A stretch of 64,000 bases of DNA from Rhodospirillales bacterium. Its GTDB lineage: Bacteria; Pseudomonadota; Alphaproteobacteria; Rhodospirillales; JAPHRK01. The first letter of the stretch is position 1. Every line of letters begins with the position of its first letter. A program made the translations under genes and the position numbers. Location of the stretch: contig JAPHRK010000009.1 in the NCBI GenBank assembly GCA_026196105.1, forward strand, positions 108,679 to 172,678. The letters run 5' to 3'. The notes beneath the pieces are model-generated. The model had not been told where the DNA came from and did no database searches. It saw only the letters and a program-made list of their open reading frames with translations. Below are positions 14,025 through 43,599 of the stretch, piece by piece.

Positions 14025-14053
14025 ATTTTTTTACCCCTGCTTGTAATCCATTT

Positions 14054-15442
14054 TCAAATTATCCCATTTGCTATCAATTGATTTTGGAAAGCGATAATTG
14101 AAGCCTCTGTACGGCGTAGTAGTTCACTGCATTCTTCTTTAGTGATGTTCAAGGGTGGGGCCACCATAAACCAGTGTCCGAACCGATTGCCGGTTATGGG
14201 TCGAGCGTAAAGCATGACACCACACTTGAGGCCGTGTTTTCGAATTGAGTCTGTCGGAGAGCAGGAGTCGGGTAATGATTTTTTTGTTTTTTTATCAGAG
14301 ACCATTTCTACGGCGAGTAACAACCCCTTTCCACGAATGTCCCCGATGATCTGGTTGCGTTCTTTGATCGCCTCTAGTTCCGCCCGCAGCATATTGCCCA
14401 CATCGCCCACGCGCTCTGAGATGTTTTGGCGCTCAAATTCATCCAGGACAGCGAGTCCGACGGCGCATGAAACAGGATTGGCGTTATAGGAGTAGCTAAA
14501 TTCGCATCCTGTAAGGTTGGCGAGTTTATCGACCATTGCGGCTGGAGCGAACATAGCCCCCAAGGGGCTGTACCCAGCCCCCAATCCCTTCGCTTTGACA
14601 ATAATATCCGGCAACGCATCGGGCCAATGGTGAGCGGTTATAAATTTGCCGCTACGACCTGCTCCACAGAGGATTTCATCAAATACCAAATAAACCCCAT
14701 AGCGGGTACATATATTTCGTATATCTCTAAAATACTGATCTGGTGGCACGATTGCGCCTGTTGAGAGCCCGCCGATGGGTTCGATAATGAACGCCAAGAC
14801 GTTTTCGGGACCAAGCTCTTGAATTTTTATTTCTAGTGCTTCTGCGCTTTTGGCGGCATAACTTTCAGGAGAATGCCCCTTGGGTAAGCGATAACTGAAA
14901 GGGGCGGGAATTGTTTCAGATGTAATGGCAAAACCATCAAAAAAAGGTGCCAAATCCTCATTACCACCAACTGCAAGGCTCCCTATTGTTGCGCCGTGGT
15001 AAGATGGCATTAAGGATATAACATGACGACGTTTTTCTTGACCCGTTGCAATTGAAAATTGACGAAGAAATTTAAGAGCATTGTCGACGACCTCACTGCC
15101 TCCAGAGGCAAAGTGTACACGCTCAAAACCGGGGCCGGCCAAAGTTGCTAAGCGTTCAGCATATTCAAGGTTGGGTCTAGACCTGGCTACGCGAGTATAG
15201 GCATAATCCAACTTGTTGGCCTGCTCTGTCATCGCGCTGATGATGCGTTTGTTGCCGTGTCCCAAAGCACTAACCATGGGACCTGAAGATGCATCTATAT
15301 ACTCCTTGCCGTCTTCGTCCCACATATAAATTCCGGCAGCGTGATCCATCATGGGCAAGGGCACGATCATCGAGTTTGCGTAATAAACGTCCTGTGTTCC
15401 GCCAACATTAGTTTCTATTGGGGGGGGGCATGCTTTGTTCAT
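14054..15442 (-). CDS. Class III PLP-dependent aminotransferase
   Basis: A 462 aa fold-type I aminotransferase of class III (ornithine/omega-amino acid aminotransferase group). Seen in order: FASGGSEVVDNALKFLR (cofactor phosphate), SYHGATIGSLAVGG, IIEPIGG, VFDEILCGAGRSG and the PLP lysine in VKAKGLGAGYSPLGAM near residue 281. The amino-group donor and acceptor are not predictable. It shares a transcript with the KamA-like gene downstream and faces the NRPS operon across the 15.4-16.1 kb gap. The N-terminus carries a run of nine C in the coding strand (codons 5-8, ACPPP), a possible slippage site; a start at the later MIVPLPMMDHAAG would avoid it. Confidence 0.9.
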   Translation of the reverse strand: MNKACPPPIETNVGGTQDVYYANSMIVPLPMMDHAAGIYMWDEDGKEYIDASSGPMVSALGHGNKRIISAMTEQANKLDYAYTRVARSRPNLEYAERLATLAGPGFERVHFASGGSEVVDNALKFLRQFSIATGQEKRRHVISLMPSYHGATIGSLAVGGNEDLAPFFDGFAITSETIPAPFSYRLPKGHSPESYAAKSAEALEIKIQELGPENVLAFIIEPIGGLSTGAIVPPDQYFRDIRNICTRYGVYLVFDEILCGAGRSGKFITAHHWPDALPDIIVKAKGLGAGYSPLGAMFAPAAMVDKLANLTGCEFSYSYNANPVSCAVGLAVLDEFERQNISERVGDVGNMLRAELEAIKERNQIIGDIRGKGLLLAVEMVSDKKTKKSLPDSCSPTDSIRKHGLKCGVMLYARPITGNRFGHWFMVAPPLNITKEECSELLRRTEASIIAFQNQLIANGII

Positions 15443-16657: not shown

Positions 16658-16921
16658 ATGGAAATTCGAAGCGCGATAGCAGGTTATATCGAAGAGGTCT
16701 CCAATGAGCAGGGCTTTGATCATTCGGCCAACCTTTTCGAATGTGGTCTGTTGACATCGTTAGATGTCCTCTCTCTCGTTGTATTTATTGAGGATACTTT
16801 CACCTTGGAAATTTCCGGTGACGACGTGGATATGGAGAGTTTTGGGACGGTTGATGGTCTTGTTGCCATGGTTGACGCAAATATAAACTCAGAGAAGGTG
16901 CATAATGCTGTTGATCCATGA
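16658..16921 (+). CDS. Stand-alone acyl/peptidyl carrier protein
   Basis: An 87 aa acidic carrier protein. I choose ATG 16658 (MEIRSAIAGYIEE) over the TTG at 16640. The phosphopantetheine serine is in NLFECGLLTSLDVLSLVVFIED near residue 36, matching the (D/N)LFExGxxxSL pattern of discrete carrier proteins. It overlaps the following acyl-AMP ligase by 17 bases, so the ligase most likely loads it. The phosphopantetheinyl transferase at the end of the operon should activate it. This pair probably supplies a starter or side-chain building block for the NRPS proteins. Confidence 0.88.
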   Translation: MEIRSAIAGYIEEVSNEQGFDHSANLFECGLLTSLDVLSLVVFIEDTFTLEISGDDVDMESFGTVDGLVAMVDANINSEKVHNAVDP

Positions 16922-18440
16922 AATGCTGGCTAAAACCGCAAGGGATCAACCTGATAAGGAGGCCATCACCTGTCGAGGACGCCGAATTTCGTTCTCGGAA
17001 TTAGAGGAAGCCTCGACGAAAATTGCTGACTTCCTTATCTCGACAGGTGTGAAGAAAGGAATGCGTATTGCAATCTTTTCGTCAAAATGTATCGACGAAG
17101 TGGCGGTGATTTTTGGAATAGCCAAAGCTGGATGTGTTCTTGTTCACATCAATCCTTCTTTCCGGGATGAAAAACTGCAGCATGTTCTGGCGGAATGTGA
17201 ACCGGCTGCACTATTCTTTCATCAGAGCAAGAAGTCTACTATTGAACGAACCAAGCAAATCGGGGTTTTACCTTCTTTACTGATTTGCTTGGCCCAGAGT
17301 GCTGAACAAGTGCTTTCACTTCCAACATACAATTTGGAAACAATTTTGAAGAAGCCTTATGATGCTGCTCAACATCGTATTTCCACAACAATTGATGGTG
17401 ATGATCTTGCGGCGATTTTATACACTTCAGGGACGACCGCTAGCGCAAAAGGGATCACCGTAACACACCGTATATTGTCAGAATCCACTCTTGTCTCTGC
17501 GCGGGTTCTAGAGAATAAGACGACCGACCGGATCATCAGTGTTACACCGTTTTCATTTGACGGAGCACTGAGCCAGTTGTTCACGACAGTGTTCGTTGGC
17601 GGAACGCTTATCTTGCAAGACTCCCATTTTCCAAAAGATATTATTAAGACTCTGATCTCAGAGAAAATCACAGGCATTCATGCCGTGCCGTCTTTTTGGT
17701 TGATGATACTCGAGCGTTGTCCCTCCTTCGCAGATTTTGAATTTCCACATCTTCGATATGTCTCGCTGATTGGTGAGGCTTTCCCGAAAGATGCGTTAGC
17801 GAAATTGAAGAGCACTCTACATTCTACAGAGTTTTTTATGATGTATGGGACGACTGAAGCGTTCCGATCTACTTTCTTGGCACCTTGTGATTTCGATGTG
17901 AAAACTTCCTCCGTTGGCAAGCCATTACCCGGTGTAGAAATCACCATTATCGACAAAAATGGCAATAGCTGTCGAGCTGGAGAAGTTGGGGAGATCGTAC
18001 ACAAAGGTGCATTCGTGTCTCCCGGTTATTGGAAGCGTGATGGCGGCGTCACGTTCCGAGGAGGTAAGGTTTACACTGGTGACCTTGGGATGTTTGACGA
18101 AGATGGTTACCTCTATTTCGTCGGGCGCAAAGATACAATGATCAAACGTTTGGGATTTCAGGTATACCCGGAAGAGATTGAGGCGTGTTTACAAAGCCTG
18201 GATGGTATCGCAACTGCAGCTACGGTATGCGTGCCAAAACCCAGCGGCGGTCACCAATTGAATGCCTTTCTGGTGCGAGATCAAGGTAGCGACGTTGCCT
18301 TGGATGTCGTTAAAAAACACTGCAAACAGCACTTACCCTACTACATGATGCCCGACAGTATTACGTTTCGTCCTTCAATGCCCAAGACGGGCACATACAA
18401 GGTGGACCGGGCTCAATTATTGACGGAGGCCAGTCCATGA
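16905..18440 (+). CDS. Stand-alone AMP-dependent acyl ligase
   Basis: A 511 aa member of the ANL superfamily (acyl-CoA ligases and adenylation domains), activating a carboxylic acid as adenylate for transfer to a carrier protein. Motifs: P-loop YTSGTTASAKGITVTH near residue 172, MYGTTEAFRSTF near residue 313, YTGDLGMFDEDGYLYFVGRKD near residue 391 and the catalytic lysine in KTGTYKVDR near residue 500. The MYGxTEAFRST segment recalls the acyl-CoA ligases of exosortase-A loci. The substrate-pocket residues read by eye (D G S H S I M R S) match no code I know; the Arg may bind an acidic group. Partner is probably the overlapping carrier protein. Confidence 0.88.
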   Translation: MLLIHEMLAKTARDQPDKEAITCRGRRISFSELEEASTKIADFLISTGVKKGMRIAIFSSKCIDEVAVIFGIAKAGCVLVHINPSFRDEKLQHVLAECEPAALFFHQSKKSTIERTKQIGVLPSLLICLAQSAEQVLSLPTYNLETILKKPYDAAQHRISTTIDGDDLAAILYTSGTTASAKGITVTHRILSESTLVSARVLENKTTDRIISVTPFSFDGALSQLFTTVFVGGTLILQDSHFPKDIIKTLISEKITGIHAVPSFWLMILERCPSFADFEFPHLRYVSLIGEAFPKDALAKLKSTLHSTEFFMMYGTTEAFRSTFLAPCDFDVKTSSVGKPLPGVEITIIDKNGNSCRAGEVGEIVHKGAFVSPGYWKRDGGVTFRGGKVYTGDLGMFDEDGYLYFVGRKDTMIKRLGFQVYPEEIEACLQSLDGIATAATVCVPKPSGGHQLNAFLVRDQGSDVALDVVKKHCKQHLPYYMMPDSITFRPSMPKTGTYKVDRAQLLTEASP

Positions 18441-19471
18441 AGCGCTGTATACAATGTGTTCTTCCCTCAACATTTCCCGGTATTTCCTTCTCTGAAGACG
18501 GTGTTTGTTCGATCTGCAGTGATTTTGCTGAACGTAAGGCCTCAATAGGTCCGGCAAAGAACCTAAATAGTACTCTCTCGAAAGCCATTGAAGCGGCCAA
18601 ATCTCAGAACCGGCAATATGATGCTGTTGTTGCCTTTAGTGGTGGGAAAGACAGCACCTTCCTCATGCATATGCTGAGGGAGACATTTGATTTGAAGCTT
18701 CTGGCTGTCACTTTTGATAATGGTTTTTTGTCTGAAGCTTGTTCCACAAATATACGCAAGGTCGTCAATGCGCTGAACGTGGATCACTTATTCATAAAAT
18801 ATCGCCAAGATCATTTGAACGGAATCTTTTTGGAAAGCGCACTTTCCCAAATCTATCCGGATCATCTGACGAAATTTGGCAGTGGTGTTTGCATCTCTTG
18901 TATTCGCATGGTCATGACCGCCACTTTGAGAACGGCGATTGAGAAGCAGATACCCATGGTTATGCTGGGCAACAGTCCAGGACAGTTGTTGCAGTCTGAG
19001 GATGAACTCATTTACCAAGACAATAAAATTCCTTACGCCCTTCGGCGACAACTCTTCTCCAAATTAGCTGAAAAACGAGGTTCCTGGATATATAATTACC
19101 TGATGCTGACGAAAGAAGAATACGGCACCAAACCTTTCCCACAAACCATTAGCCCCCTTCCAATCGTCGGATACGACGAAGCTGAAATTTACCGCACTAT
19201 TGCGGACCTTGGCTGGTTGAAGCCAGAAGATGTTGATCCAAATTCCACGAATTGTCGTTTAAACGCATTCGGTATTATCAGACACAAAAATCAATACAAA
19301 TTTCATCCTTATGACTACGAGATGAGCGAACTGGTTCGACTGGGCTCAATGAGCAGAGAAGCTGCGCTGGAGAAGTTGGAGGACGTGGCAGGAAAGGTTG
19401 GAGACATAGCGGCAGGGGTTGAAAAGGATATGTTTTGTGGGTCCTGTGCTGGTCAAAGAAAGGTCGTATAG
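18437..19471 (+). CDS. WbpG-like PP-loop ATP pyrophosphatase
   Basis: A 344 aa adenine-nucleotide alpha-hydrolase-type enzyme. The PP-loop is VAFSGGKDSTFLM near residue 65. The N-terminus (CIQCVLPSTFPGISF then GVCSICSDF) closely resembles WbpG/PseA-type N-acetyl sugar amidotransferases, with paired CxxC motifs probably binding zinc. Further cysteines are in GVCISCIRM and at the end in MFCGSCAGQ. WbpG converts an acetamido group to an acetamidino group with ammonia from HisH/HisF-like partners; here an AsnB gene follows three bases later and may be the ammonia source. PP-loop enzymes can also insert sulfur, as CtaC does in closthioamide, so amidine or thioamide formation on a carrier-bound acid are both possible. 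ATGA overlap with the ligase gene. Confidence 0.82.
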   Translation: MKRCIQCVLPSTFPGISFSEDGVCSICSDFAERKASIGPAKNLNSTLSKAIEAAKSQNRQYDAVVAFSGGKDSTFLMHMLRETFDLKLLAVTFDNGFLSEACSTNIRKVVNALNVDHLFIKYRQDHLNGIFLESALSQIYPDHLTKFGSGVCISCIRMVMTATLRTAIEKQIPMVMLGNSPGQLLQSEDELIYQDNKIPYALRRQLFSKLAEKRGSWIYNYLMLTKEEYGTKPFPQTISPLPIVGYDEAEIYRTIADLGWLKPEDVDPNSTNCRLNAFGIIRHKNQYKFHPYDYEMSELVRLGSMSREAALEKLEDVAGKVGDIAAGVEKDMFCGSCAGQRKVV

Positions 19472-19474
19472 TTG

Positions 19475-21256
19475 ATGTGTGGGATTTGCGGTGTCTTTGA
19501 TATGAGCAGTGACAAATCCGTTTCACGGGCTGTGCTCGGGAAGATGAATGAGACGTTATCTCATCGTGGTCCGGATGACAGTGGTCTCTATCTCGACCGC
19601 TCCATTGGCCTTGGGCACCGCCGTCTATCTGTAATTGATCCTGGCAATGGTCAGCAGCCATTCAGCAATCATGACGGTACGGTATGGCTTTCTTACAACG
19701 GTGAGATTTACAATCACGTTGAATTGAGACAGGAGCTTGTGAAAAAAGGGCACCGCTTTGTCACTAACTGTGACACCGAAGTAATCGTGCACGCCTATGA
19801 GGAATACGGCCGAGAATGCGTGTCGAAATTCAATGGGATGTTTTCCTTCGCGTTATGGGACAAAAAAAAGAACTCTCTCTTTATTGCGAGGGACCGTTTG
19901 GGCATTAAGCCGCTTTATTTTGGGGTTTATGGTTCTGATTTTATATTTGCCTCAGAGATTAAGGCCATTTTGGAGCATCCGGCGGTAAGTGCTGAAGTCG
20001 AACTCGCTGCTATTCCAGAATATATTTTATGTACCTCGCTCCTTAATTCAAAGACGATGTTTAAAAATATCCATTCCGTGCCGCCTGGTAATACAATGGT
20101 GATCGCAAACGGTGATATCAAAAAACATTGTTACTGGTCGATGGAGCATAGTAGTGCTGGCCAACGAAATACTTCATTTGATGTCTGTTGTGAAGAAGTC
20201 CAAGCCCTTCTGGATTCTTCTATCAAAATGAGAGTTCGGAGCGATGTGCCTTTCGGGACATTATTGAGTGGGGGATTGGACTCAAGCCTCGTGTCAGCCA
20301 TGGCAACAAGGCATATTGACGGCCCTCTCAAGACTTTTTCGATGGGATATCATAAAAATAAGGAGCTGAGGCCCGAAGGCACGGATGCCTACTACGCAGC
20401 TCAGGTGGCAAGCGCTTATGACACTGATCATATGGAATTGCTGTTTCAATCCGAAGATTATTTCGACGTAATGAAGAGCGTGACATGGCATGTTGAGAAA
20501 CCTGTTGATCTGACCTCTCCCTCTCTATTCCTCCTATATAAAGGGGTGAAGCCAAATGTGACTGTTGTGACGTCGGGTGAGGGGGCAGATGAACTATTTG
20601 CGGGCTATGATTTCTTTCTTAACAATAATCAGGCAGAGCAATTGAGTGAATTTCCGTGGGCTCCTTACCTAGCTGAAGTTTCTACCCTTCTGGACCCCGC
20701 AATAGAAAAGGAAACAGGATATCAAGAGACGGTTAGTACGACCCTGAACAAAGAGATGAATGCTCTTGAGAGCGATGACGGACTCAATAAGCAGCTCTAT
20801 CTGTTCATGAAATATTATCTGGTTGATATGCTGGAGCGTCTGGACAAAACGAGTATGGCTTGGGGTGTTGAATCTCGGGTTCCTTTCCTAGATCACAGAT
20901 TGGTTGAATACGTAGTCAACATGCCTTCCTCATATAAATCAAAGGCAAGTGACTCAAAGATCCTTCTCAAAAATATCGCAACTGACATGCTGCCAAAAGG
21001 TGTTGTAAACAGAAAAAAACGACCTGTTCCAATCCCGGTCGATCCGATGACACTGCTCAAACAACGAAATAGGGCCAACGAATTGGTACAATCCGGAGAC
21101 TCAGCGATTGGGGGGTACTTTGATAAAAAGAACGTGGATAACTTTTTCAAAAAAAAGGCGCAGTATGCCTCGACCGATGATCTCGCTATTTACAGGACAT
21201 CACACACGTTGATTGCCCTTGATCACTGGCATAGAGCGTTCGGGGTTGCGGCATGA
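19475..21256 (+). CDS. Glutamine-hydrolysing asparagine synthase-like amidotransferase
   Basis: Start moved to ATG 19475 so that the catalytic Cys follows Met (MCGICGVFD), as required for class II glutaminases; the listed TTG at 19472 would block it. The 593 aa product has the N-terminal glutaminase domain (SHRGPDDSGLYLD, SYNGEIYNHVELR) and the C-terminal synthetase domain with PP-loop LLSGGLDSSLVSAMA near residue 268 and SGEGADELFAGYD. Family members make Asn, or amidate carboxylates in antibiotic and polysaccharide pathways. Here it may supply ammonia to the adjacent PP-loop enzyme, amidate a carrier-bound acid, or make Asn for the Asn-type NRPS module. Ribosome site AAGAAAGG; ATGA overlap with the next gene. 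Confidence 0.9.
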   Translation: MCGICGVFDMSSDKSVSRAVLGKMNETLSHRGPDDSGLYLDRSIGLGHRRLSVIDPGNGQQPFSNHDGTVWLSYNGEIYNHVELRQELVKKGHRFVTNCDTEVIVHAYEEYGRECVSKFNGMFSFALWDKKKNSLFIARDRLGIKPLYFGVYGSDFIFASEIKAILEHPAVSAEVELAAIPEYILCTSLLNSKTMFKNIHSVPPGNTMVIANGDIKKHCYWSMEHSSAGQRNTSFDVCCEEVQALLDSSIKMRVRSDVPFGTLLSGGLDSSLVSAMATRHIDGPLKTFSMGYHKNKELRPEGTDAYYAAQVASAYDTDHMELLFQSEDYFDVMKSVTWHVEKPVDLTSPSLFLLYKGVKPNVTVVTSGEGADELFAGYDFFLNNNQAEQLSEFPWAPYLAEVSTLLDPAIEKETGYQETVSTTLNKEMNALESDDGLNKQLYLFMKYYLVDMLERLDKTSMAWGVESRVPFLDHRLVEYVVNMPSSYKSKASDSKILLKNIATDMLPKGVVNRKKRPVPIPVDPMTLLKQRNRANELVQSGDSAIGGYFDKKNVDNFFKKKAQYASTDDLAIYRTSHTLIALDHWHRAFGVAA

Positions 21257-22419
21257 TTGATTATGATGACCGCCTAATTTCGAATGGTAGAGATTTTGTC
21301 AAAAGGGTTATCGCACCGATCGCGAGTGAGATGGACGAAAAGGAAGAATTCCCCTTTGATGCATTCCGGCAAATGGGGGAGTTTGGATTGTTTGGGGTAC
21401 CCTATCCAGAACAATATGGCGGGATGGGTCTCGATTATATGTCCTTCACCGGACTTATCCGCGAGATTGCCAAGGTTTGTGCCTCAACGGCTATGACAGC
21501 TTTGTCCCATGCGACATTGACATGTGGTCCAATATTTACCCATGGGGGGGAGCAACTCAAAGAGAGGTTCCTTTTACCACTTATAAGCGGTGAGAAAATC
21601 GGCTCTTTTGCAATGACTGAAGCGGAGAGCGGATCAGATGTTTCATCGATTGGCACGCGCGCTAAGTTGTCGGGAGATGACTACATCCTCAACGGTTCCA
21701 AGATGTATATCACAAACGCTAATGTGGCCGATGTCGCCGTTGTTGTTGCAAGTACCTCTCCCCAGGCGGGTTTGTTGGGACTAAGCCTGTTTGTTGTTGA
21801 GAAAGGGATGCCGGGTTTTTCAGCAACCGGACGTCGGGAACGAAAACTCGGCATGCGAGCCTCCGATACGGGTGAACTAGTTTTTAATGATGTACGTGTC
21901 CCCAAAGAGAATCTGATTGGCGGCAAGAACAGAGGCTTCAAGGTTCTGCAGCAAACACTGGCGACAGCTAGGTTGGGTATGGCAGCTATTGCTATCGGCA
22001 TATCTGAAGGTGCCAGGGATTTTTCTATCGATTATGCCATGCAAAGAAAGCAGCAAGGAAAACCTCTACACCGCTTTCAAATGATCAAGAGCATGTTGGC
22101 AGATATGGAAATGAAAATCAGTGCTGCGGACTTGCTCTTGAAAAAGAGTGTGTGGCTACGTGATCAAGGAAAGAATTTTACAAAAGAAGCTGCTGAAGCA
22201 AAGCTGTTTGCTTCTGAAATGGCAGTGGAAATTACCAAAGATGCGATTCAGATTCACGGTGCTTATGGGTATTGCAGGGATTTGCCGATTGAACGGTTTT
22301 TCAGAGATGCCAAGCTGACAGAAATCGGAGACGGAACCTCTGAAATCCAGCGATTGATTATTGCTGATGAGATGATCAAAGCACGATCCCATTCCCGAAA
22401 TAATGCACTGGCTTTGTAA
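21253..22419 (+). CDS. Acyl-CoA dehydrogenase-family flavoprotein
   Basis: A 388 aa FAD enzyme of the acyl-CoA dehydrogenase family. Visible signatures: FAMTEAESGSDVSSIGT near residue 117, the QIHGAYGYCRDLPIERFFRDAK segment near residue 335 and EIGDGTSEIQR near residue 358. The last aligns with IYEGTSQIQR of medium-chain dehydrogenase, whose Glu is the catalytic base; here it is Asp. In NRPS and PKS clusters such enzymes desaturate carrier-bound acyl or aminoacyl groups. The gene overlaps asnB by four bases and precedes the first NRPS gene by 16 bases, so the substrate is probably carried on the stand-alone carrier protein. Confidence 0.9.
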   Translation: MIDYDDRLISNGRDFVKRVIAPIASEMDEKEEFPFDAFRQMGEFGLFGVPYPEQYGGMGLDYMSFTGLIREIAKVCASTAMTALSHATLTCGPIFTHGGEQLKERFLLPLISGEKIGSFAMTEAESGSDVSSIGTRAKLSGDDYILNGSKMYITNANVADVAVVVASTSPQAGLLGLSLFVVEKGMPGFSATGRRERKLGMRASDTGELVFNDVRVPKENLIGGKNRGFKVLQQTLATARLGMAAIAIGISEGARDFSIDYAMQRKQQGKPLHRFQMIKSMLADMEMKISAADLLLKKSVWLRDQGKNFTKEAAEAKLFASEMAVEITKDAIQIHGAYGYCRDLPIERFFRDAKLTEIGDGTSEIQRLIIADEMIKARSHSRNNALAL

Positions 22420-22435: not shown

Positions 22436-25400
22436 ATGCGGCAGGAAACGGACACCCAAAAAACAACATATCCCGAAATAAAACCTAGTGGGAATAAACA
22501 GTTCTCACCTCTTTCATTTCAGCAGGAGCGGGTTCTTTATCTACACAAGCTGTCATCGGAAGGGGCGTTGTGGAACCGAATTTCCTGCAAAAAAATGCTA
22601 GGGGATATAGATATTCCGTCCTTGAAAAAGGTGATTGAAGCCCTCATTGAAAGACATACCGTTCTTAAAACCAAAGTAAGTATTGTTGGCGGAGAACCTC
22701 GTCAGTCGCAGCACGAGAGGCTTGAAGGGGCATTCCAGTATATTGATATTTCCGCTCAACCTGAGGCCGATTTGGAAGAGAAGGCTAGAGCGATATTGAA
22801 TCGTGAATACCAGGAGTTGTTACCTCTGGAGAATGGTGAACTTTTTAAAGCCATACTTGTGCAATGCAGTGAGACTGAGACATGGCTGATTCTTAAGTTA
22901 CATCACATTATTTCAGATGCGACGACATTCCGGATTTTATGGGATGATCTAAAATTATTGTATAATTCTCAGTCTGGTGAAGCTGAAACGCTACCGCCAC
23001 TCGATATCGAATACTCTGACTACTCCTATTGGCTTAGAAAACAATTCGGAGAAGAAAACACGAAAGAACAGGAAGCCTACTGGCTTGACCAGTTTAGTGG
23101 TGAGATTCCGAGGTTAGATTTACCAACAGATTTCTCAGAACCGCCAAATTTGACGTTTAAAGGGGCTGTAGAAAAGCAACTGCTCCCGAAGGAACTAATA
23201 AAACGTCTTCAGTCATTTAGCTTTAAAAAGAGGGTAATCCCCTTTTCGACAATGCTGAGTGCCTATTATTTACTGCTGCATAATTATTGTCACCAAGACG
23301 ATATCGTTATTGGTTCGGTGTTTTTAGGCCGCCATTACAATCCACAGGTCAAACGTCTGGCAGGTTTTTTTGCAAACACCGTCGCACTACGGGCTCAACT
23401 TGAGAAAACTCAAACGGTCGAAGAGTTTGTCAAATATGTGCATACCAAGGTTACCGCTGCACATGAAATGCAGGATTACCCTCTGGAGAGGCTTGTAGAT
23501 AAACTCGATCTGGATCGGGAACATCAACGAAATCCTCTTTTCCGCGCATTGTTTAACATGGTTACTGGGCATGAGGAGAAGCATACATTTAAGGGGATAC
23601 AGCAGGAAGGATGGTTAGAACCTGAAATTAGTGCCACGCAAGTAGATTTTTTCCTTGATTTTCATATGAATGCTGAAGAGTCGGATCTGCGCATTGAGTA
23701 CAACGCCGATATCTTTTCCAAGGCGACAATCCAGCGCATGTTGCGCCATTACATCGTCATCGTCGAAAAAATAATGGACTCTCCGAATACAAATATTGGG
23801 GAGTTGGGCATGCTTAATGAAGTTGAGAAGCAGAAAGTTTTATCCTTTAGTGAGGGCGAAACAGTTTCTTGGAATTTCGACCAAGGCGTGGTTGGACTGT
23901 TGGAAGAACGTGCCGAGCAAACACCAGAGCAGACGGCACTGTTATTTGCTGATCAGATGATGAGCAATGGCCAATTTAATAAGAAAGTAAATCAACTGGC
24001 TGCGACGCTGATCGATACCGGAGTTGCCGACACTGATATCGTAGCGATCATGGTAGACCGGTCTCCTGAAATGATGATTGGCTTGTTTGCCATTTTGAAA
24101 GTGGGGGCCGCTTACCTGCCCATCGACCCTACATTTCCTCAGCAACGTATAGAATACATTTTGCAAGATAGTGGCGCTAAATGTCTGCTTTCCCAGGAAG
24201 ACGCCGGGCAAACCTTAGAACAGAGTGATACGGACCTTTCCCTCAAGTACATTCCAATTGATCAAGAGAGTTCATATAGCGGGAATGGAAATAATATAGG
24301 CAAGCGGCTGGATGGTTCGAACCCAGCCTATGTGATCTATACCTCGGGATCGACAGGTAAACCAAAGGGCGTCATTGTTGAACACAGTGCTCTAATGAAT
24401 ACCCTGCAGTTTATGGAAGCCAAGTATCCATTAACTGAAAAGACGATCCTGCTAAAAACGAATTTCACATTCGATGTTTCCTGCACAGAGTTGTTTGGCT
24501 GGCTATATGATAGTGGGCGGCTTGCCCTACTAGATAAAGGGGCTGAAAAGGACCCGTCCAGCCTAATAGGGGCGATAGGTAAATTTGGGGCTACTCATAT
24601 TGATTTTGTACCCTCAATGCTGGATGCCTTTTTGGCCGGATTGAAGGAAAATGACATTCCGACAATTGAAAAGCTAGAATATGTTTTTGTGGCAGGTGAG
24701 GCTCTTAAGCCAGATTTAGTCAACCGCTTCTATAGGATGATTAACACTGTAAAGCTTGAAAATTTGTATGGCCCTACAGAAGCCGCGATCTATGCGACAT
24801 GGTACCCCTTACCGCGAAAAGAAGAGCTAAAACAGGTTTCCATCGGCAAACCGCTAACCAATACGAGGTCATATGTTCTTGATGAAAATCTAGAGTTATT
24901 GCCGGTCGGTGTGGTTGGGGAACTCTGCCTGTCAGGTGCAGGACTTGCTCGGGGGTATATGAACAACCCTGAGTTAACGGATGAAAAATTTTGCCGTAAT
25001 CCACATTGGGAAGGCGAAAGGATTTATAGAACAGGTGATTTAGCGAAGTGGGATGATGAGGGGTTGATACAATTCCTCGGCAGAGGAGATGGCCAACTCA
25101 AGATAAGGGGCTTTCGGGTTGAAATTGGGGAAGTTGAAAGGAAACTTCTTGGATGCCGCGATATTGCTGAAGCGGTGGTGACCACAAGGGCTGATCAATT
25201 TGGACAGGTAGGTCTTGTCGCCTATGTCACCACTAAACAAGGACAAAAATTGTCAACGGTGGATATTCGTAAGGAACTGGCTGCTTGGTTACCTTGTTAC
25301 ATGATTCCAGATTTTATTAAGGACCTAGAGGAATTGCCTAGGTTGCCTAGTGGCAAGATTAACATCCACGCTCTCCTGGAACTCGAATGGAGCAACGCTC

Positions 25401-25747
25401 CCTCAACAGAGACACAAGTTGCAGCAACAGAGCTAGAGCAGATTGTTATCGGGATAGCTGAAAAATTGCTCAATACCTCCGATCTTGATCCGGATAGCAA
25501 TTTTTTCCAATTGGGGGGGAACTCATTGTTGACCCTTCGTTTTATTGCCGCGCTTGATGAAACTTTGGGCACAAGTTTGTCGGTTATGGATTTTCTTGAG
25601 TTGCCGACAATTTCTGAAATAGCAAAACTCATTGAGAATTCGGATTCATATGTAGAAGTGTCCTCAGAAGTGGTGCTTAAAAGAAAAGAGGGTATCGTTG
25701 GTGCAAATAAAGTTGTCCAGGACAACTTCGAAGGCGCAAAAATATGA
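22436..25747 (+). CDS. NRPS protein 1, one module (C-A-T)
   Basis: A 1103 aa single-module nonribosomal peptide synthetase with ribosome site AGGAGAT. C domain about residues 20-450: the active motif reads HHIISDATTF, with Ala in place of the usual Gly of HHxxxDG. A domain about 480-975: P-loop YVIYTSGSTGKPKGVIVEH, LYGPTEAAIYATWY, YRTGDLAKW and catalytic Lys in LPSGKINIHALL, so it looks active. My by-eye specificity code is D-V-T-D-F-A-L-I-Y-K, which I cannot assign. T domain about 1000-1065 with FFQLGGNSLLTL. A C domain at the N-terminus means an upstream donor is expected, probably the discrete carrier protein. ATGA overlap with NRPS 2. Confidence 0.95.
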   Translation: MRQETDTQKTTYPEIKPSGNKQFSPLSFQQERVLYLHKLSSEGALWNRISCKKMLGDIDIPSLKKVIEALIERHTVLKTKVSIVGGEPRQSQHERLEGAFQYIDISAQPEADLEEKARAILNREYQELLPLENGELFKAILVQCSETETWLILKLHHIISDATTFRILWDDLKLLYNSQSGEAETLPPLDIEYSDYSYWLRKQFGEENTKEQEAYWLDQFSGEIPRLDLPTDFSEPPNLTFKGAVEKQLLPKELIKRLQSFSFKKRVIPFSTMLSAYYLLLHNYCHQDDIVIGSVFLGRHYNPQVKRLAGFFANTVALRAQLEKTQTVEEFVKYVHTKVTAAHEMQDYPLERLVDKLDLDREHQRNPLFRALFNMVTGHEEKHTFKGIQQEGWLEPEISATQVDFFLDFHMNAEESDLRIEYNADIFSKATIQRMLRHYIVIVEKIMDSPNTNIGELGMLNEVEKQKVLSFSEGETVSWNFDQGVVGLLEERAEQTPEQTALLFADQMMSNGQFNKKVNQLAATLIDTGVADTDIVAIMVDRSPEMMIGLFAILKVGAAYLPIDPTFPQQRIEYILQDSGAKCLLSQEDAGQTLEQSDTDLSLKYIPIDQESSYSGNGNNIGKRLDGSNPAYVIYTSGSTGKPKGVIVEHSALMNTLQFMEAKYPLTEKTILLKTNFTFDVSCTELFGWLYDSGRLALLDKGAEKDPSSLIGAIGKFGATHIDFVPSMLDAFLAGLKENDIPTIEKLEYVFVAGEALKPDLVNRFYRMINTVKLENLYGPTEAAIYATWYPLPRKEELKQVSIGKPLTNTRSYVLDENLELLPVGVVGELCLSGAGLARGYMNNPELTDEKFCRNPHWEGERIYRTGDLAKWDDEGLIQFLGRGDGQLKIRGFRVEIGEVERKLLGCRDIAEAVVTTRADQFGQVGLVAYVTTKQGQKLSTVDIRKELAAWLPCYMIPDFIKDLEELPRLPSGKINIHALLELEWSNAPSTETQVAATELEQIVIGIAEKLLNTSDLDPDSNFFQLGGNSLLTLRFIAALDETLGTSLSVMDFLELPTISEIAKLIENSDSYVEVSSEVVLKRKEGIVGANKVVQDNFEGAKI

Positions 25748-28700
25748 CTGCGGTCAGCATTCGAACATATCCGCGGATACCGTCAAATGTAGAGGAAACT
25801 TGTTACCCGCTGACTTTCCAACAGGAAAGGGTGATCTATTTTTGTGAACTCGATCCAGATAGTTCCATATGGGACATCAATACTTGCAAACGCCTGACGG
25901 GAAAACTGGATATTAACAAATTGGGTAAGGCCGTTGAGCGGTTGGTCGGCGGTCACCAGATTTTAAAAACGAGGATATTTAAAACTGATGGTGACCCCAA
26001 GCAATCGTTTGATCAGGATACAAGCGAGGCGTTTCGTCATATCGATATGACGAATGAAGCAGCGCAAAATGTTGAAAACGCTCTGTCATTACGAATTACA
26101 GAAATATGCCAAAAACCAATTTCCAAATGGACCTTTGATGATCTGCTTTTTGAAGTTGTCGCGTTCACCCTTACTCCGGTAAATCACGTCCTCCTTTTCC
26201 GTATCCACCATATCATTTCCGATGCGGCTTCTGTCGATGTCTTGTGGCGTGACCTTGCCGATATCTACAACCAATTAGTTTCCGGAGCTAAAGGGGAATT
26301 GCCTCCGAAAACTCTGAAGTATTCGGATTATGCAATATGGCAGCGTCGTCAATTTGATGTAGAGCAAACGCGTGAGCAAGAAGAATACTGGCTTGCTCAA
26401 TTTTCAGACGAAGTTCCTGCCCTCGATTTGCCAACAGATTTTTCCTCATCGGCAGAGCTTTCTTTCAAAGGCGGGCTTGAAATTGTTGAGATGCCCAAGG
26501 AATTGATTGAAAAGCTTCAGGTACTCAGTTGGAAAAAGAGAGTACTGCTGTTTTCCAGTCTTTTTTCAGCTTATTTCGTGCTTCTCCAAAAATTCTGTCA
26601 ACAAGAGGATATCACGGTCGGCGCGTTGTTTTCCGGGCGCCATTATAGTCCTGACCTCCAGGAAGTGGTCGGGTTCTTTGTGAATATGGCTGCTGTGCGG
26701 GTCAATGTCGGTTGGGATTGCACGTTTGATCAACTCGTGGAGCAGGTTCATGAGAAAGTTGAGATGGCGTATTCCATGCAGGATTACCCATTCGAGCGCC
26801 TTGTGCAAAAATTGGCACCCAATAGAGATGATGGCAGGATGCCCTTGGTTCGAACAATGTTCAACGTGGTGTCGAATGCTGATGATGAATGCATGTTCGC
26901 TGGAATGGAGAAGGAGAGTTGGGTCGATGTTGCGACACAGACAAACGCAGTTCAGGTTGATCTAATTTTTGATATCCATTGGGGGGCTAAAGGTGCTGAA
27001 ATCAGGATTGAGCATAATACGGATATCTTCAAAACAAGTACAGTTTCTCGGCTGGCGGAACATTACATCACGCTTCTTGAACAACTAGGTTCAGGTTGGG
27101 ACGTTGGATTGAGTGAACTTGAACTTGTGACTGATGAAGAGAAACAACAACTCATTGAGGGTGTAAACCCAGAAAGCGTTCCCTATGCACACGATAAATG
27201 TGTCCACGAGTTGTTCGAAGAACAAGCTAACAAAAGGCCGGAAGATATCGCCATTGTGGATGGTGATTGCATCTATACATATGAAGAGGCGAACAAAAAA
27301 ACTAACCGCTTAGCCAGGGTTCTAAGAGGTATGGGGGTCGTGCCTGACAGCATCGTCGCCATTATCGGTGAACGAACAGCTGATATGGTTCTAGGGCAGC
27401 TCGGGATTTTGAAAGCTGGCGGAGCCTATTTGCCGATTGTTGCCAATAGTCCTAAAAAACGTATTCATGAAATGTTGCGTGATGCCGCTCCGCGAGTATT
27501 GATCCTTCCCGATAGTTTTGATGACGATATCGAATTTGACGGGCCAGTGCTTAGGCTTGGTGATGCCGTTGTGAATGAGGCTGATGAGGCCAACCTTGCC
27601 AACTTGACCGGACCTTCAAATCTCGCCTACGTCCTTTATACATCTGGGTCTACTGGGGTACCTAAAGGGGTTATGGTGGAGCAGCGTAGTGTTGTCAATT
27701 TAGCGATAAATGCGGAATATGTAGAGTTCCGTTCTGATGACCGAATACTACAAACCGGTGCTCCTGCATTTGATGCAACGACATTTGAGGTATGGGGTGC
27801 TCTACTTAACGGCCTGCGGCTTTATGTCGTCGGTGAAGAGGTTCTGCTGGATGCAGAAGCATTAGGGAAATATCTGGAAGAAAACCAAATCAGTATCATG
27901 TTTATGACCCCGCCGTTGTTTCATCAGTCGGTTGAGGTCAACAACTCCCTGTTTAAATCTTTGAGGTATCTGATTGTTGGTGGGGATGTGCTGTCGGTGA
28001 AGCATGTTGAATTGGCAAGAAAAGCAAACCCCTCCCTTACAATTATTAACGGATATGGACCAACGGAAAATACAACATTTTCAACATGTTACACTGTTGT
28101 TGAAGCAGAGAAAAGAACGATCCCTATTGGCACGCCAATACCTAACTCAAGGGCCTATATCCTGGACAGGGAAATGAAACCTTCGCCGATTGGGGCCATA
28201 GGAGAACTCTATGTTGGTGGCGATGGTTTGGCACGTGGTTACCTAAACCGACCGGAGTTAACTAGGGAAAAATTTATTCCAGACCCCTTCTTGCCTGGAG
28301 AGAGGGTTTATAAGACGGGAGACCTGACACGACGGCGTCCTGATGGAAACATAGAGTTTATTGGTCGAGCTGATAATCAGGTCAAAATCAGAGGGTTCAG
28401 GATTGAATTAGGTGAGATTGAAAATCGATTACTTGACCATGAAAATATAAAAGAAGCGATTGCGACTTCGTCTACCGGGGAAGATGGAAACAAGTTTATT
28501 TGTGCTTATTATGTCGCCGGTTCGACGCTCACTAAAACAGAATTGCGCAAACATCTCGCAGATTTGCTGCCAGGTTATATGGTGCCGTCTTATTTTTGTC
28601 AGGTGGAGCAAATGCCTTTGACTGAGAGCGGAAAAATCGATCAGAAAATGCTCCCAGTGCCGCAGATGAACACGGGGCAGGAAAAGATACAAACCGATTG

Positions 28701-28953
28701 GGAGAGTGCCACAGAAACGAGCATTGCTCGTATATGGGAAGAATTGTTGGGAACATCGAATATCGGTGCACATGACAACTTCTTTGATGTGGGTGGTCAT
28801 TCCATGACTGCTAGCTGGCTGGCTCGTCGGCTAAGTATGGAATTCGGTGTAAAAGTATCACTTAGAACAATCTTTGATTCACCAACGGTTGCTGAATTGG
28901 CGACATTGGTCGGCAATGACGAGGGGAAAAGCGCAGAGAAGAGGGTTGTTTGA
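25744..28953 (+). CDS. NRPS protein 2, one module (C-A-T), Val-like
   Basis: A 1069 aa single NRPS module. C domain about residues 15-445 with HHIISDAASV, again Ala for Gly as in NRPS 1, which suggests the two C domains are close relatives. A domain about 465-955 with intact motifs (YVLYTSGSTGVPKGVMVEQ, GYGPTENTTF, YKTGDLTRR, TESGKIDQKMLP). The code read by eye is D-A-F-F-I-G-G-T-F-K, close to the valine code D-A-F-W-I-G-G-T-F-K, so valine or a similar branched residue is likely. T domain about 985-1055 with FFDVGGHSMTASW. It shares one base with the start of NRPS 3. No epimerase domain. Confidence 0.95.
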   Translation: MTAVSIRTYPRIPSNVEETCYPLTFQQERVIYFCELDPDSSIWDINTCKRLTGKLDINKLGKAVERLVGGHQILKTRIFKTDGDPKQSFDQDTSEAFRHIDMTNEAAQNVENALSLRITEICQKPISKWTFDDLLFEVVAFTLTPVNHVLLFRIHHIISDAASVDVLWRDLADIYNQLVSGAKGELPPKTLKYSDYAIWQRRQFDVEQTREQEEYWLAQFSDEVPALDLPTDFSSSAELSFKGGLEIVEMPKELIEKLQVLSWKKRVLLFSSLFSAYFVLLQKFCQQEDITVGALFSGRHYSPDLQEVVGFFVNMAAVRVNVGWDCTFDQLVEQVHEKVEMAYSMQDYPFERLVQKLAPNRDDGRMPLVRTMFNVVSNADDECMFAGMEKESWVDVATQTNAVQVDLIFDIHWGAKGAEIRIEHNTDIFKTSTVSRLAEHYITLLEQLGSGWDVGLSELELVTDEEKQQLIEGVNPESVPYAHDKCVHELFEEQANKRPEDIAIVDGDCIYTYEEANKKTNRLARVLRGMGVVPDSIVAIIGERTADMVLGQLGILKAGGAYLPIVANSPKKRIHEMLRDAAPRVLILPDSFDDDIEFDGPVLRLGDAVVNEADEANLANLTGPSNLAYVLYTSGSTGVPKGVMVEQRSVVNLAINAEYVEFRSDDRILQTGAPAFDATTFEVWGALLNGLRLYVVGEEVLLDAEALGKYLEENQISIMFMTPPLFHQSVEVNNSLFKSLRYLIVGGDVLSVKHVELARKANPSLTIINGYGPTENTTFSTCYTVVEAEKRTIPIGTPIPNSRAYILDREMKPSPIGAIGELYVGGDGLARGYLNRPELTREKFIPDPFLPGERVYKTGDLTRRRPDGNIEFIGRADNQVKIRGFRIELGEIENRLLDHENIKEAIATSSTGEDGNKFICAYYVAGSTLTKTELRKHLADLLPGYMVPSYFCQVEQMPLTESGKIDQKMLPVPQMNTGQEKIQTDWESATETSIARIWEELLGTSNIGAHDNFFDVGGHSMTASWLARRLSMEFGVKVSLRTIFDSPTVAELATLVGNDEGKSAEKRVV

Positions 28954-38303: not shown

Positions 38304-39430
38304 ACCAGGAAGATGCCGTTAACAGGGCTATTGAGGATGTCGTAGACCTACATCGGAACCGTTTTACTCTTTTGAAAGAAGCCAAAAAACCCAAGATCGG
38401 CTGGGTAACAATTTATACACCGGAGGAAATCCTCCTTGCTGCTGGCGTGATTCCGTTTCGATTGACTGGAGAGGTTGGATTAAACTCAACTGAGCCGAGT
38501 GCTATTCTTGGCAACAATTACTGTTCTTATGTTTTGTCGTGTCTGGGCGAAGGTCTGGCCGGTGTGTATGATTTTGCTGATGGCATTATTTTCGCGGATG
38601 CTTGTGACATGCGAAAGAGACTTTGGGAAGCTTGGGCACGGGAAATTCCATCGAATAAAAGCTATTTTCTAGAATTTCCAAATGATGCAAGTGATATTTC
38701 CAAAGAGTATTTTGCTTCACAATTACGTAAATTAATCAAAATATTAGAGCGTGAATACGAGTGTGAAATCACCGGTGAGGCTCTACGACAGTCAATTAAG
38801 GTTTGCAATGAGTCCAGGACACTCATGCAACGACTCTTCAAAAACAAGAAAGGGGAGCGACTAGCTTTGTCAGGGCCGGAATCGATACAGGTTGTCAAAG
38901 CTGCGTCTACTGGAATGAAGGAGTCCTTCAATACAAAAATATCAGCACTGATTGACGTTTTGGAGACGGCAGAACAACCCCCAGCCCGTGATAGGCATCG
39001 CGTGATGATATGTGGAAGTTATTTTGACCACAGTGAAATTATTGAAACAATTGAAGGAGCCGGGGCTGACTTTGTTTGTGGCGATATCAGCAATGGAGTC
39101 AAATATTTTGAAGGGAATATCGATCTCAATTCGGACCCTGTCACAGCGATTGCTGACTATTATCTTGAGAAAAATACCAGCGCTTACAGGCTGGATACCG
39201 ATGTTCGGGTAGAGCACTTACTTGACTTAGTGGAAGAGTACCAGGTGGACTCGGTAATTTATTACGCTTTGAAGTTTTGCGACACAAATTTACACGACTT
39301 CCCTTACGTGAAAGAGAAGCTGAAAGAGGAGAAAATCCCCGTCTTATTTATTGAGGGGGAGCGTAACACAACAAATTTTGGTGGAACGAAAACCCGTATT
39401 CAGACCTTTCTGGAAGCACGGATGTTTTGA
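38300..39430 (+). CDS. 2-hydroxyacyl-CoA dehydratase D-component-like subunit 1
   Basis: A 376 aa protein of the HgdB/BcrC/BadD family, whose dimers carry [4Fe-4S] clusters and reduce or dehydrate acyl thioesters through radical intermediates. Family segments seen: PKIGWVTIYTPEEILLAAGVIPFRL near residue 33, candidate cluster cysteines in NNYCSYVLSC near residue 75, FADACDMRKRL near residue 104 and YALKFCDTNLHD near residue 320, then PVLFIEGERN. The start overlaps the NRPS 3 stop as ATGA, so it is co-translated with the synthetase. The likely substrate is a carrier- or CoA-bound acid in the same pathway. The double-cubane-cluster reductases are a close alternative family. Confidence 0.87.
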   Translation: MNQEDAVNRAIEDVVDLHRNRFTLLKEAKKPKIGWVTIYTPEEILLAAGVIPFRLTGEVGLNSTEPSAILGNNYCSYVLSCLGEGLAGVYDFADGIIFADACDMRKRLWEAWAREIPSNKSYFLEFPNDASDISKEYFASQLRKLIKILEREYECEITGEALRQSIKVCNESRTLMQRLFKNKKGERLALSGPESIQVVKAASTGMKESFNTKISALIDVLETAEQPPARDRHRVMICGSYFDHSEIIETIEGAGADFVCGDISNGVKYFEGNIDLNSDPVTAIADYYLEKNTSAYRLDTDVRVEHLLDLVEEYQVDSVIYYALKFCDTNLHDFPYVKEKLKEEKIPVLFIEGERNTTNFGGTKTRIQTFLEARMF

Positions 39431-39439
39431 GGAGGTAAC

Positions 39440-40657: not shown

Positions 40658-40677
40658 ATAATTGGTAGGACGTAAAA

Positions 40678-43591: not shown

Positions 43592-43599
43592 AAAATTCT

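What the first reader, a model, noticed from the sequence alone, without database searches (positions are those of the whole stretch)
16658..22419. Five-gene starter-unit cassette with carrier, ligase, PP-loop enzyme, AsnB and dehydrogenase
A discrete carrier protein and ligase are followed without gaps by a WbpG-like PP-loop enzyme, a glutamine amidotransferase and an acyl-CoA dehydrogenase, before the first NRPS protein, which itself opens with a C domain needing a donor. The arrangement suggests that an acid is loaded on the carrier, given nitrogen (amide or amidine) and desaturated before being passed to NRPS 1. I do not recognise this combination from a known pathway.
Basis: inference. 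Interest (0 to 1): 0.72.

Follow-up and report, generated by a model that had tools for sequence, protein, structure and literature searches.

The report
Carrier-bound nitrile-making starter cassette
Five genes at the head of a peptide-antibiotic-type operon appear to load an amino diacid onto a small carrier protein and turn its spare acid group into an amide and then, by a free-standing relative of the enzyme domain that makes the nitrile of albicidin, into a nitrile, a route from acid to nitrile on a carrier that has not been described in this form.

Summary
The five genes are real, in order and nearly gapless (16658-22419), and head one operon running to 42190: carrier, ligase, PP-loop enzyme, AsnB, acyl-CoA-dehydrogenase-like enzyme, three NRPS proteins, a 2-hydroxyacyl-dehydratase-like pair with activase, and a PPTase. 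The set, dehydratase included, recurs at 45-60% identity in five Paenibacillus species. The PP-loop protein is not a sugar enzyme by family cut-off: it is a stand-alone homologue of the AMDH domain of AlbIV/CysH, which dehydrates carrier-bound asparagine to cyanoalanine (PMC7966384). Loci with the domain embedded in an NRPS have it in an Asn-coded A domain and no amidotransferase nearby (0/17); 55 of 64 loci with the stand-alone form have AsnB or an NAD-synthetase-like amide former nearby. The ligase pocket resembles beta-aminoacyl-ACP synthetases, with the amine-binding Asp and VinN's carboxylate-binding Arg. Best reading: amino-dicarboxylate -> ACP -> amide (AsnB) -> nitrile (PP-loop) -> desaturation -> NRPS. 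A cysteine triad resembling the [4Fe-4S] ligands of NcsA/TtuA could explain the brown colour reported for CysH. Untested: substrate, product, the dehydratase's role, and whether the unit starts or ends the peptide.

The parts
16658..16921 (+). discrete acyl carrier protein (87 aa, phosphopantetheine Ser in GLLTSLD)
   Evidence: PF00550 26.6 bits over cut-off 20.8; 55% identical to the carrier in Paenibacillus
16905..18440 (+). stand-alone AMP ligase (511 aa), beta-aminoacyl-ACP-synthetase-like pocket
   Evidence: PF00501/PF13193; pocket code DGSHSIM with Asp235, Arg at VinN-331 position; identical code in five Paenibacillus; best PDB matches of the pocket region CmiS6 and HitB
18437..19471 (+). 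PP-loop enzyme (344 aa): stand-alone AMDH-type amide dehydratase, probably with a [4Fe-4S] cluster
   Evidence: 31% identity, E 1.5e-45, to the domain embedded in X. albilineans AlbIV; invariant C4 C7 C24 C27 SGGKDS C152 C155 GQ183 S270 N272 C273 in 59-62 sequences; AlphaFold2 model pLDDT 92.6, best PDB match 8wex TM 0.65, then NcsA/TtuA
19475..21256 (+). AsnB-type glutamine-dependent amidotransferase (593 aa), Cys2 and synthetase P-loop intact
   Evidence: TIGR01536 519 bits over cut-off 267; MCGICG N-terminus and LSGGLDSS
21253..22419 (+). acyl-CoA-dehydrogenase-like flavoenzyme (388 aa)
   Evidence: PF00441/02770/02771; nearest NCBIfam AcrC, below cut-off; 59-60% to Paenibacillus
22436..25747 (+). 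NRPS 1, C-A-T, A code DVTDFALIY (unassigned; Ser-like)
25744..28953 (+). NRPS 2, C-A-T, A code DAFFIGGTF (Val-like)
28950..38303 (+). NRPS 3, three C-A-T modules: Asn code DLTKIGEVG, Leu-like DAMFLGNVV, then a dead A domain; no thioesterase
38300..39430 (+). 2-hydroxyacyl-CoA-dehydratase-like subunit 1 (376 aa), Cys at YCSY, ACD, KFCD
   Evidence: PF06050 257 bits; 49-50% in the five Paenibacillus genomes, about 14 kb from the PP-loop gene in P. elgii and P. ehimensis; sequence
39440..40657 (+). 2-hydroxyacyl-CoA-dehydratase-like subunit 2 (405 aa), Cys at DICS, QPC, WGC
   Evidence: PF06050 154 bits; sequence
40678..41451 (+). acyl-CoA dehydratase activase (257 aa)
   Evidence: TIGR00241 256 bits over cut-off 125; NDKCAAGC and STCTVFAE motifs
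41516..42190 (+). 4'-phosphopantetheinyl transferase (224 aa)
   Evidence: PF17837/PF01648
12711..14024 (-). KamA-family radical SAM protein, probable helper gene (beta-amino acid supply)
   Evidence: TIGR00238 125.6 bits, below cut-off 199; CHAYCSFC motif; 46-48% homologues lie next to NRPS genes in Mycetohabitans and Streptomyces
14054..15442 (-). class III aminotransferase, possible helper gene
   Evidence: aspartate-aminotransferase-family models, below cut-offs

Best explanation
The cassette builds one carrier-bound nitrile unit. (1) The ligase adenylates an amino-dicarboxylic acid and loads it on the discrete carrier, holding the amine with Asp235 and the spare carboxylate with the Arg at the VinN-331 position (inferred; L-Asp through its side chain, or beta-glutamate, are the leading candidates). 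(2) AsnB turns the spare carboxylate into a carboxamide with glutamine nitrogen (inferred from family). (3) The PP-loop enzyme, a stand-alone AMDH, activates the amide oxygen with ATP and removes water to give the nitrile (reaction shown for CysH in the literature, inferred here); the three invariant Cys probably hold a [4Fe-4S] cluster with a free iron site. (4) The dehydrogenase sets a double bond next to the thioester, as a gene deletion suggests for BolQ of bolagladin (inferred). (5) The unit is handed to the first C domain of NRPS 1 as starter (inferred, about 60%), otherwise to the A-less terminal module. The dehydratase/activase set acts somewhere in the same pathway; its step is unknown.
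For: Whole operon, with dehydratase, conserved in five Paenibacillus species. PP-loop enzyme homologous to the AlbIV domain along its length with all motif residues shared; CysH's domain dehydrates carrier-bound Asn in vitro (PMC7966384). All 17 embedded loci plus L014 have the Asn code. Complementary partners: of 64 discrete loci AsnB within 6 kb in 37, NAD-synthetase-like in 21, at least one in 55; of 17 embedded loci none. Carrier and ligase each in 56 of 64. Ligase: identical pocket code in the window and Paenibacillus at 50% overall identity; pocket region best matched by CmiS6 and HitB with no gap in the beta13-beta14 loop; Asp and Arg as in VinN/BolO/AfcQ (PMC11253843, PMC7756342, PMC12186527). 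A beta-amino-acid aminomutase-like gene sits inside the Paenibacillus cassette. P. elgii has no Asn module, so its PP-loop enzyme has no Asn-loaded T domain to act on.
Against: No activity, substrate or product is known to me for any stand-alone member. The AMDH domain of CysH also carries out an aminomutation, so the outcome could be an isomerised amide. The ligase lacks VinN's F231 and S299 (G and I here). The catalytic Glu of many acyl-CoA dehydrogenases reads Asp in the window and in Paenibacillus (GDGTSEI), and the nearest named relative is a reductase (AcrC), so step 4 may run the other way. Nine of 64 stand-alone loci show no amide former within 6 kb, though four of these are short or cut contigs. 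The role of the 2-hydroxyacyl-dehydratase-like enzyme is not explained.
Confidence: 0.55

Rival explanations
1. The carrier-bound unit is not the starter but is transferred in trans to the terminal module, whose own A domain is dead (window) or missing (Paenibacillus), as CysH feeds the dead module 3 of CysK through CysB.
For: The last A domain has lost the A3 motif, Asp235, the A7 Asp and the A10 Lys; Paenibacillus NRPS 2 ends C-T with no A; the two terminal C domains are each other's closest by identity, 45%; precedent in cystobactamid (PMC7966384).
Against: No CysB/SyrC-like shuttle gene was seen in the window operon (Paenibacillus has a free thioesterase-family gene); NRPS 1 opens with a C domain and then would need another donor; bolagladin gives the starter precedent (PMC7756342).
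Confidence: 0.3
2. The PP-loop enzyme makes an amidine (acetamidino-type chemistry of WbpG), with AsnB as ammonia source.
For: Nearest named family is TIGR03573, best solved structure is Legionella N-acetyl sugar amidotransferase 8wex, TM 0.65.
Against: Below TIGR03573 cut-off; sequences of that wider family in related genomes mostly lack C152, C155, C273 and GQ183; no HisH/HisF-like partner in the operon; many loci have an NAD-synthetase-like partner of about 330 aa instead of AsnB; the AlbIV/CysH relatives give nitrile.
Confidence: 0.12
3. The PP-loop enzyme acts in trans on the Asn-coded module of NRPS 3 (a split AMDH), while ligase, carrier, AsnB and dehydrogenase make an ordinary amidated, desaturated starter.
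For: NRPS 3 module 1 has the Asn code DLTKIGEVG, the code found around every embedded AMDH.
Against: Paenibacillus keeps the PP-loop gene inside the cassette but P. elgii has no Asn module; stand-alone relatives occur with ligase, carrier and AsnB in loci without any NRPS seen.
Confidence: 0.12
4. The PP-loop enzyme is a sulfurtransferase that makes a thioamide or thioacid on the carrier, like the [4Fe-4S] thiolases NcsA/TtuA.
For: CxxC aligns with the cluster ligands of NcsA (hhalign 98.5%) and a third Cys is at a comparable place; fold search lists NcsA/TtuA next after 8wex.
Against: The same triad is present in AlbIV, whose product holds cyanoalanine, and CysH dehydrates Asn with ATP alone (PMC7966384); no sulfur-donor gene in the operon.
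Confidence: 0.06
5. A surface-polysaccharide modification cassette that happens to lie beside an NRPS operon.
For: Relatives of the carrier-ligase-PP-loop-AsnB set lie with glycosyltransferases, Wzz and exosortase genes in many genomes.
Against: Here and in Paenibacillus the genes are contiguous with NRPS genes, with overlapping stops and starts, and the ligase differs from the polysaccharide-locus ligases at the amine-binding Asp.
Confidence: 0.05

Closest known systems
AMDH domain of CysH (cystobactamid) and AlbIV (albicidin)
   Same: Homologous PP-loop protein (31% to AlbIV), same Cys and SGGKDS motifs, acts on a carrier-bound unit
   Different: Free-standing; served by AsnB, a separate ligase and a discrete carrier; the ligase is not Asn-coded; outside the embedded clade, which has 100/100 support. 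The 2021 study reports homologues only inside Asn A domains
Bolagladin / AFC-BC11 starter cassettes (BolO-BolC-BolN-BolQ; AfcQ)
   Same: VinN-type ligase, free ACP and (bolagladin) an acyl-CoA-dehydrogenase-like enzyme making a beta-amino starter for an NRPS (PMC7756342, PMC12186527)
   Different: In bolagladin the spare carboxylate is proposed to be removed by a PLP decarboxylase; here no decarboxylase, but AsnB plus a stand-alone AMDH
XrtA/PEP-CTERM (exosortase) ligase and amidotransferase set, TIGR03098/TIGR03108
   Same: Ligase is nearest to TIGR03098 and AsnB scores second best to TIGR03108; carrier-ligase-AsnB-PP-loop sets occur in such loci
   Different: Both below cut-off; ligases there lack the amine-binding Asp; no NRPS
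N-acetyl sugar amidotransferase WbpG/WbuX (TIGR03573)
   Same: N-terminal Cys pairs, PP-loop, fold (8wex)
   Different: Below cut-off, extra Cys triad, no HisH/HisF partner, carrier-protein context
ATP-dependent nitrile synthetases QueC/ToyM, ArtA/NitB, PesC
   Same: ATP-driven amide to nitrile chemistry; a PDB chain called nitrile synthetase (9lei) gives a weak match, E 0.0027
   Different: Different enzymes; as described in PMC13060819 they act on nucleobases, polyketides, amino-acid side chains or a peptide C-terminus, not with a ligase-carrier-AsnB set
Acrylate-pathway enzymes (2-hydroxyacyl-CoA dehydratase with activase; AcrCAB)
   Same: Dehydratase pair, activase and AcrC-like flavoenzyme in the operon; AcrA/AcrB-like ETF in the Paenibacillus cluster
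   Different: Found in an NRPS operon; no paper in the library holds both terms

Membership tests
AMDH (CysH/AlbIV) amide dehydratase | sequence homology over the whole domain with SGGKD ATP motif | tested here: met
   31% over 329 columns, E 1.5e-45 to AlbIV domain; SGGKDS invariant
AMDH (CysH/AlbIV) amide dehydratase | inserted in an Asn-specific A domain | tested here: not met
   free-standing 344 aa gene; partner ligase code DGSHSIM, not Asn
AMDH (CysH/AlbIV) amide dehydratase | dehydrates a carrier-bound amide | not testable with these tools
   needs intact-protein MS
N-acetyl sugar amidotransferase TIGR03573 | score over curated cut-off | tested here: not met
   133.5 against 203.2 bits
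N-acetyl sugar amidotransferase TIGR03573 | HisH/HisF-like ammonia partners nearby | tested here: not met
   none among the operon's genes
VinN-type beta-aminoacyl ligase | amine-binding Asp (D230) | tested here: met
   FSFDG, aligned to GrsA D235
VinN-type beta-aminoacyl ligase | shortened beta13-beta14 loop with Arg331 | tested here: met
   EAFR against EASAR in polysaccharide-locus ligases; ungapped to CmiS6/HitB
VinN-type beta-aminoacyl ligase | F231 and S299 | tested here: not met
   G and I at GrsA 236 and 301
AsnB asparagine synthase TIGR01536 | score over cut-off, Cys2 glutaminase, synthetase P-loop | tested here: met
   519 against 267 bits; MCGICG, LSGGLDSS
XrtA-associated ligase / amidotransferase TIGR03098, TIGR03108 | scores over curated cut-offs | tested here: not met
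   416.5 against 592; 457 against 817 bits
L-prolyl-PCP dehydrogenase NF045652 (pyrrole starter) | score over curated cut-off | tested here: not met
   248.6 against 650 bits
2-hydroxyacyl-CoA dehydratase system | two HGD-D subunits plus activase with their Cys | tested here: met
   PF06050 twice, TIGR00241; three Cys per subunit in the window and Paenibacillus
[4Fe-4S] PP-loop enzymes (NcsA/TtuA/TtcA) | CxxC plus third Cys as cluster ligands | tested here: inconclusive
   C152-x2-C155 aligns exactly; C273 (STNC) lies by eye on the third NcsA Cys (ECPY), but hhalign sets it some residues off; model coordinates could not be inspected

The most novel reading that the evidence does not exclude
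A stand-alone, iron-sulfur AMDH works with AsnB (or an NAD-synthetase-like enzyme), a dedicated ligase and a discrete carrier as a portable acid-to-amide-to-nitrile module, used here to start an NRPS with a desaturated beta-amino nitrile and, in exosortase/polysaccharide loci of many phyla and in Methanosarcina, to make nitrile acyl groups for surface polymers; in the present operon it is coupled to a radical 2-hydroxyacyl-dehydratase, the first in an NRPS pathway.
Probability: 0.3. Interest if true: 0.85.

Novelty: new variant of a known kind. Interest (0 to 1): 0.7.

Why it matters
Nitriles are useful reactive groups in drugs and few enzymes that make them are known. This would be a separable set (ligase, carrier, AsnB, dehydratase) that turns an acid into a nitrile on a carrier protein. 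It also offers an answer to an open question of the cystobactamid work, namely which metal makes CysH brown and how the AMDH domain works: a conserved CxxC plus Cys triad like that of [4Fe-4S] PP-loop thiolases. The link with a radical dehydratase, normally an anaerobic fermentation enzyme, would be unusual for a peptide pathway.

Tried and rejected
Pyrrole-type starter (proline A enzyme, PCP, dehydrogenase): the dehydrogenase is far below the prolyl-PCP model and the ligase pocket is of another type. LPS sugar amidotransferase: below cut-off, no HisH/HisF. Plain fatty-acid loading: the pocket is that of amino-acid enzymes with Asp235. The paper library gave nothing for PP-loop + NRPS + amidine, adenine nucleotide alpha hydrolase + NRPS + thioamide, or 2-hydroxyacyl-CoA dehydratase + NRPS. 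A Stachelhaus reading of the ligase with Arg at 330 was corrected to the VinN-331 position after the loop length was compared. A search of 60 genomes of the same order found only distant, mostly partial relatives, so the cassette is not a trait of the lineage. The TtuA family search in relatives found none; NcsA from archaeal genomes was used instead. NRPS 1 code DVTDFALIY could not be assigned. Promoter and terminator scans gave no more than shuffles.
Full report
OBSERVATION. The five genes are as described: carrier 16658-16921, ligase 16905-18440, PP-loop enzyme 18437-19471, AsnB 19475-21256, acyl-CoA-dehydrogenase-like 21253-22419, all on the + strand, overlapping or abutting, followed 16 bases later by NRPS 1. 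Family assignments hold. The operon does not stop there: NRPS 1 (C-A-T), NRPS 2 (C-A-T) and NRPS 3 (three C-A-T modules) overlap by 4 bases each, and NRPS 3 overlaps the first of two genes of the 2-hydroxyglutaryl-CoA dehydratase D family, followed by the activase and a PPTase. No thioesterase is present.

CONSERVATION. A scan of 84,980 prokaryote species with a profile of the PP-loop protein gave five Paenibacillus species (elgii, ehimensis, tyrfis, oleatilyticus, sp. MZ04-78.2) at 57-58% identity, then a drop to 41%. In all five the order is carrier, ligase, PP-loop, a KamA-family radical SAM gene, AsnB, dehydrogenase, NRPS 1, NRPS 2; the KamA-family protein scores next best to glutamate 2,3-aminomutase, below its cut-off. 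In P. elgii two genes like the electron-transfer subunits of acryloyl-CoA reductase precede the carrier, and NRPS 2 (C-A-T-C-T) is followed by a thioesterase-family gene, the dehydratase pair, activase, a MATE exporter and a methyltransferase. The dehydratase subunit is 49-50% identical in all five and about 14 kb from the PP-loop gene in P. elgii and P. ehimensis. Sixty genomes of the window's own order have nothing close, so the cluster is scattered, as horizontally moved clusters are.

THE PP-LOOP ENZYME. Relatives fall in two sets. In 17 loci of the genome collection, and in the Roseovarius plasmid, the protein is a domain inserted in an NRPS A domain between core and C-terminal subdomain; the Pseudohalocynthiibacter plasmid has the same arrangement by tblastn. 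One is the 941-aa NRPS of Xanthomonas albilineans (L089), which I take to be AlbIV of albicidin; another (L092) is a myxobacterial protein whose domain is 69% identical to it, the figure given for CysH against AlbIV. That work named the domain AMDH and showed in vitro that CysH converts carrier-bound L-asparagine to beta-cyanoalanine (-18 Da), and that the protein without the domain does not (PMC7966384). All 17 embedded domains, and the Roseovarius one, lie in A domains with the asparagine code DLTK[IV]GE[VI]G. In 64 loci, the window among them, the protein is free-standing. In the tree the embedded set is one group with full support, and the window and Paenibacillus proteins are a fully supported group within the free-standing set.

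PARTNERS. Within 6 kb of the 64 free-standing genes there is a carrier in 56, a ligase in 56, AsnB in 37 and a protein of the NAD-synthetase family in 21; 55 have at least one of the last two and only three have both. None of the 17 embedded loci has either. Asparagine already bears an amide; where a ligase loads something else, an amide-forming enzyme comes along. That is what a two-step route, carboxylate to carboxamide to nitrile, predicts. Limits: loci are not independent, many are contigs of uncultured organisms, and four of the nine without a partner are short or cut. Many of these loci are exosortase or polysaccharide loci, a use of the same set that I did not find described.

COFACTOR. 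Across 59-62 sequences the invariant residues include C4, C7, C24, C27, SGGKDS, C152, C155, G182-Q183, S270-x-N272-C273. Most of the sugar-type relatives in related genomes lack the triad 152/155/273. An hhalign comparison with archaeal NcsA (98.5% probability) puts C152-x2-C155 exactly on the cluster-binding CxxC; STNC corresponds by eye to the third ligand (ECPY), though the global alignment sets it some residues off. The predicted structure (pLDDT 92.6) is closest to the Legionella sugar amidotransferase 8wex and then to NcsA and TtuA. CysH was reported to be dark brown with the metal unidentified, the authors having looked for CxxCxxxC; a TtuA-like [4Fe-4S] site would explain it. This is inference.

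THE LIGASE. Window and Paenibacillus ligases are 50% identical overall but have the same pocket residues. The amine-binding Asp235 is present. After the TE of motif A5 they read AFR, one residue shorter than the ASAR of polysaccharide-locus ligases, which lack the Asp. The pocket region alone best matches the stand-alone beta-amino-acid enzymes CmiS6 and HitB, without a gap in that loop. In VinN the shortened loop holds Arg331, which with Ser299 binds the spare carboxylate of (3-methyl)aspartate, and Asp230 binds its amine (PMC11253843, PMC7756342); BolO is proposed and AfcQ shown to take L-Asp, loaded through its side chain (PMC7756342, PMC12186527). Two other VinN residues are not shared. 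I therefore expect an amino-dicarboxylate, L-Asp or beta-glutamate being likeliest; the aminomutase-like gene inside the Paenibacillus cassette favours the latter there.

HOW IT WOULD WORK. Loading by the ligase; amidation of the spare carboxylate by AsnB; ATP-driven dehydration by the PP-loop enzyme; desaturation by the dehydrogenase, as inferred from a gene deletion for BolQ in bolagladin; transfer to NRPS 1. In bolagladin the spare carboxylate is proposed to be lost to a decarboxylase; here there is none, and AsnB plus the AMDH take its place. The downstream A codes read unassigned, Val-like, Asn, Leu-like, and a last A domain that has lost its A3 motif, Asp235, A7 Asp and A10 Lys. Since P. 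elgii also ends in a module without an A domain, and cystobactamid feeds such a module in trans, delivery to the end of the chain is a serious rival.

WHAT IS NOT EXPLAINED. The dehydratase and activase have their metal-binding cysteines and are conserved with the cassette, but no step in the scheme needs them. With the AcrC-like flavoenzyme and, in Paenibacillus, AcrA/AcrB-like partners they resemble an acrylate-pathway set, which would remove an alpha-hydroxyl and reduce the double bond; then the flavoenzyme would be a reductase. The window genome gave no full-length match to that ETF subunit. Genes 42677-45260 (two U32 proteins and an SCP2 protein) look like ubiUV and ubiT, which would fit an organism that also lives without oxygen.

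VERDICT. Observation confirmed; interpretation right in outline and sharpened. New variant of a known kind: a free-standing AMDH with its own amide-forming partner and carrier, in a conserved NRPS operon.

Noticed in passing
38300-41451: 2-hydroxyacyl-CoA-dehydratase-like pair plus activase inside an NRPS operon, conserved in Paenibacillus; role unknown.
   Followed up: partly
35178-38303 (NRPS 3, last module): Dead A domain (A3, Asp235, A7 Asp, A10 Lys lost); the P. elgii counterpart has no A domain at all.
   Followed up: yes
12711-15442: Divergent KamA-family radical SAM and class III aminotransferase genes; KamA homologues at 46-48% lie next to NRPS genes in Mycetohabitans and Streptomyces.
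   Followed up: partly
L021-L068, L070-L079: Carrier-ligase-PP-loop sets with AsnB or an NAD-synthetase-like protein in exosortase/polysaccharide loci of many phyla and in Methanosarcina-type archaea, mostly without NRPS genes.
   Followed up: partly
L074, L080-L095: Recurrent clusters in Bacteroidota and Rhodobacterales: Asn A domain with embedded AMDH, discrete A enzyme and carrier, in some an acyl-CoA-dehydrogenase-like gene, and in Bacteroidota a TonB receptor; products unknown to me.
   Followed up: no
L015 14190-20882: Streptomyces sp. NBC_01216 plasmid: AsnB, A-T protein, PP-loop enzyme fused to a C domain, and an Asp/Glu racemase-family gene in a row.
   Followed up: no
L057, L059, L060: AsnB-carrier-PP-loop set beside a Ser-coded NRPS and further assembly-line genes (a KS-AT-T-TE protein in L057), with no free ligase.
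   Followed up: no
42677-45260 (-): Two U32 proteins and an SCP2 protein, probably ubiUV and ubiT for oxygen-independent ubiquinone synthesis (Pfam only).
   Followed up: no
16150-16584: 144-aa protein of no Pfam family just upstream of the carrier gene.
   Followed up: no
21253-22419: The usual catalytic Glu motif reads GDGTSEI (Asp) in the window and Paenibacillus dehydrogenases.
   Followed up: no
G000:C5:4122-6415: A second HGD-D pair elsewhere in the same genome.
   Followed up: no
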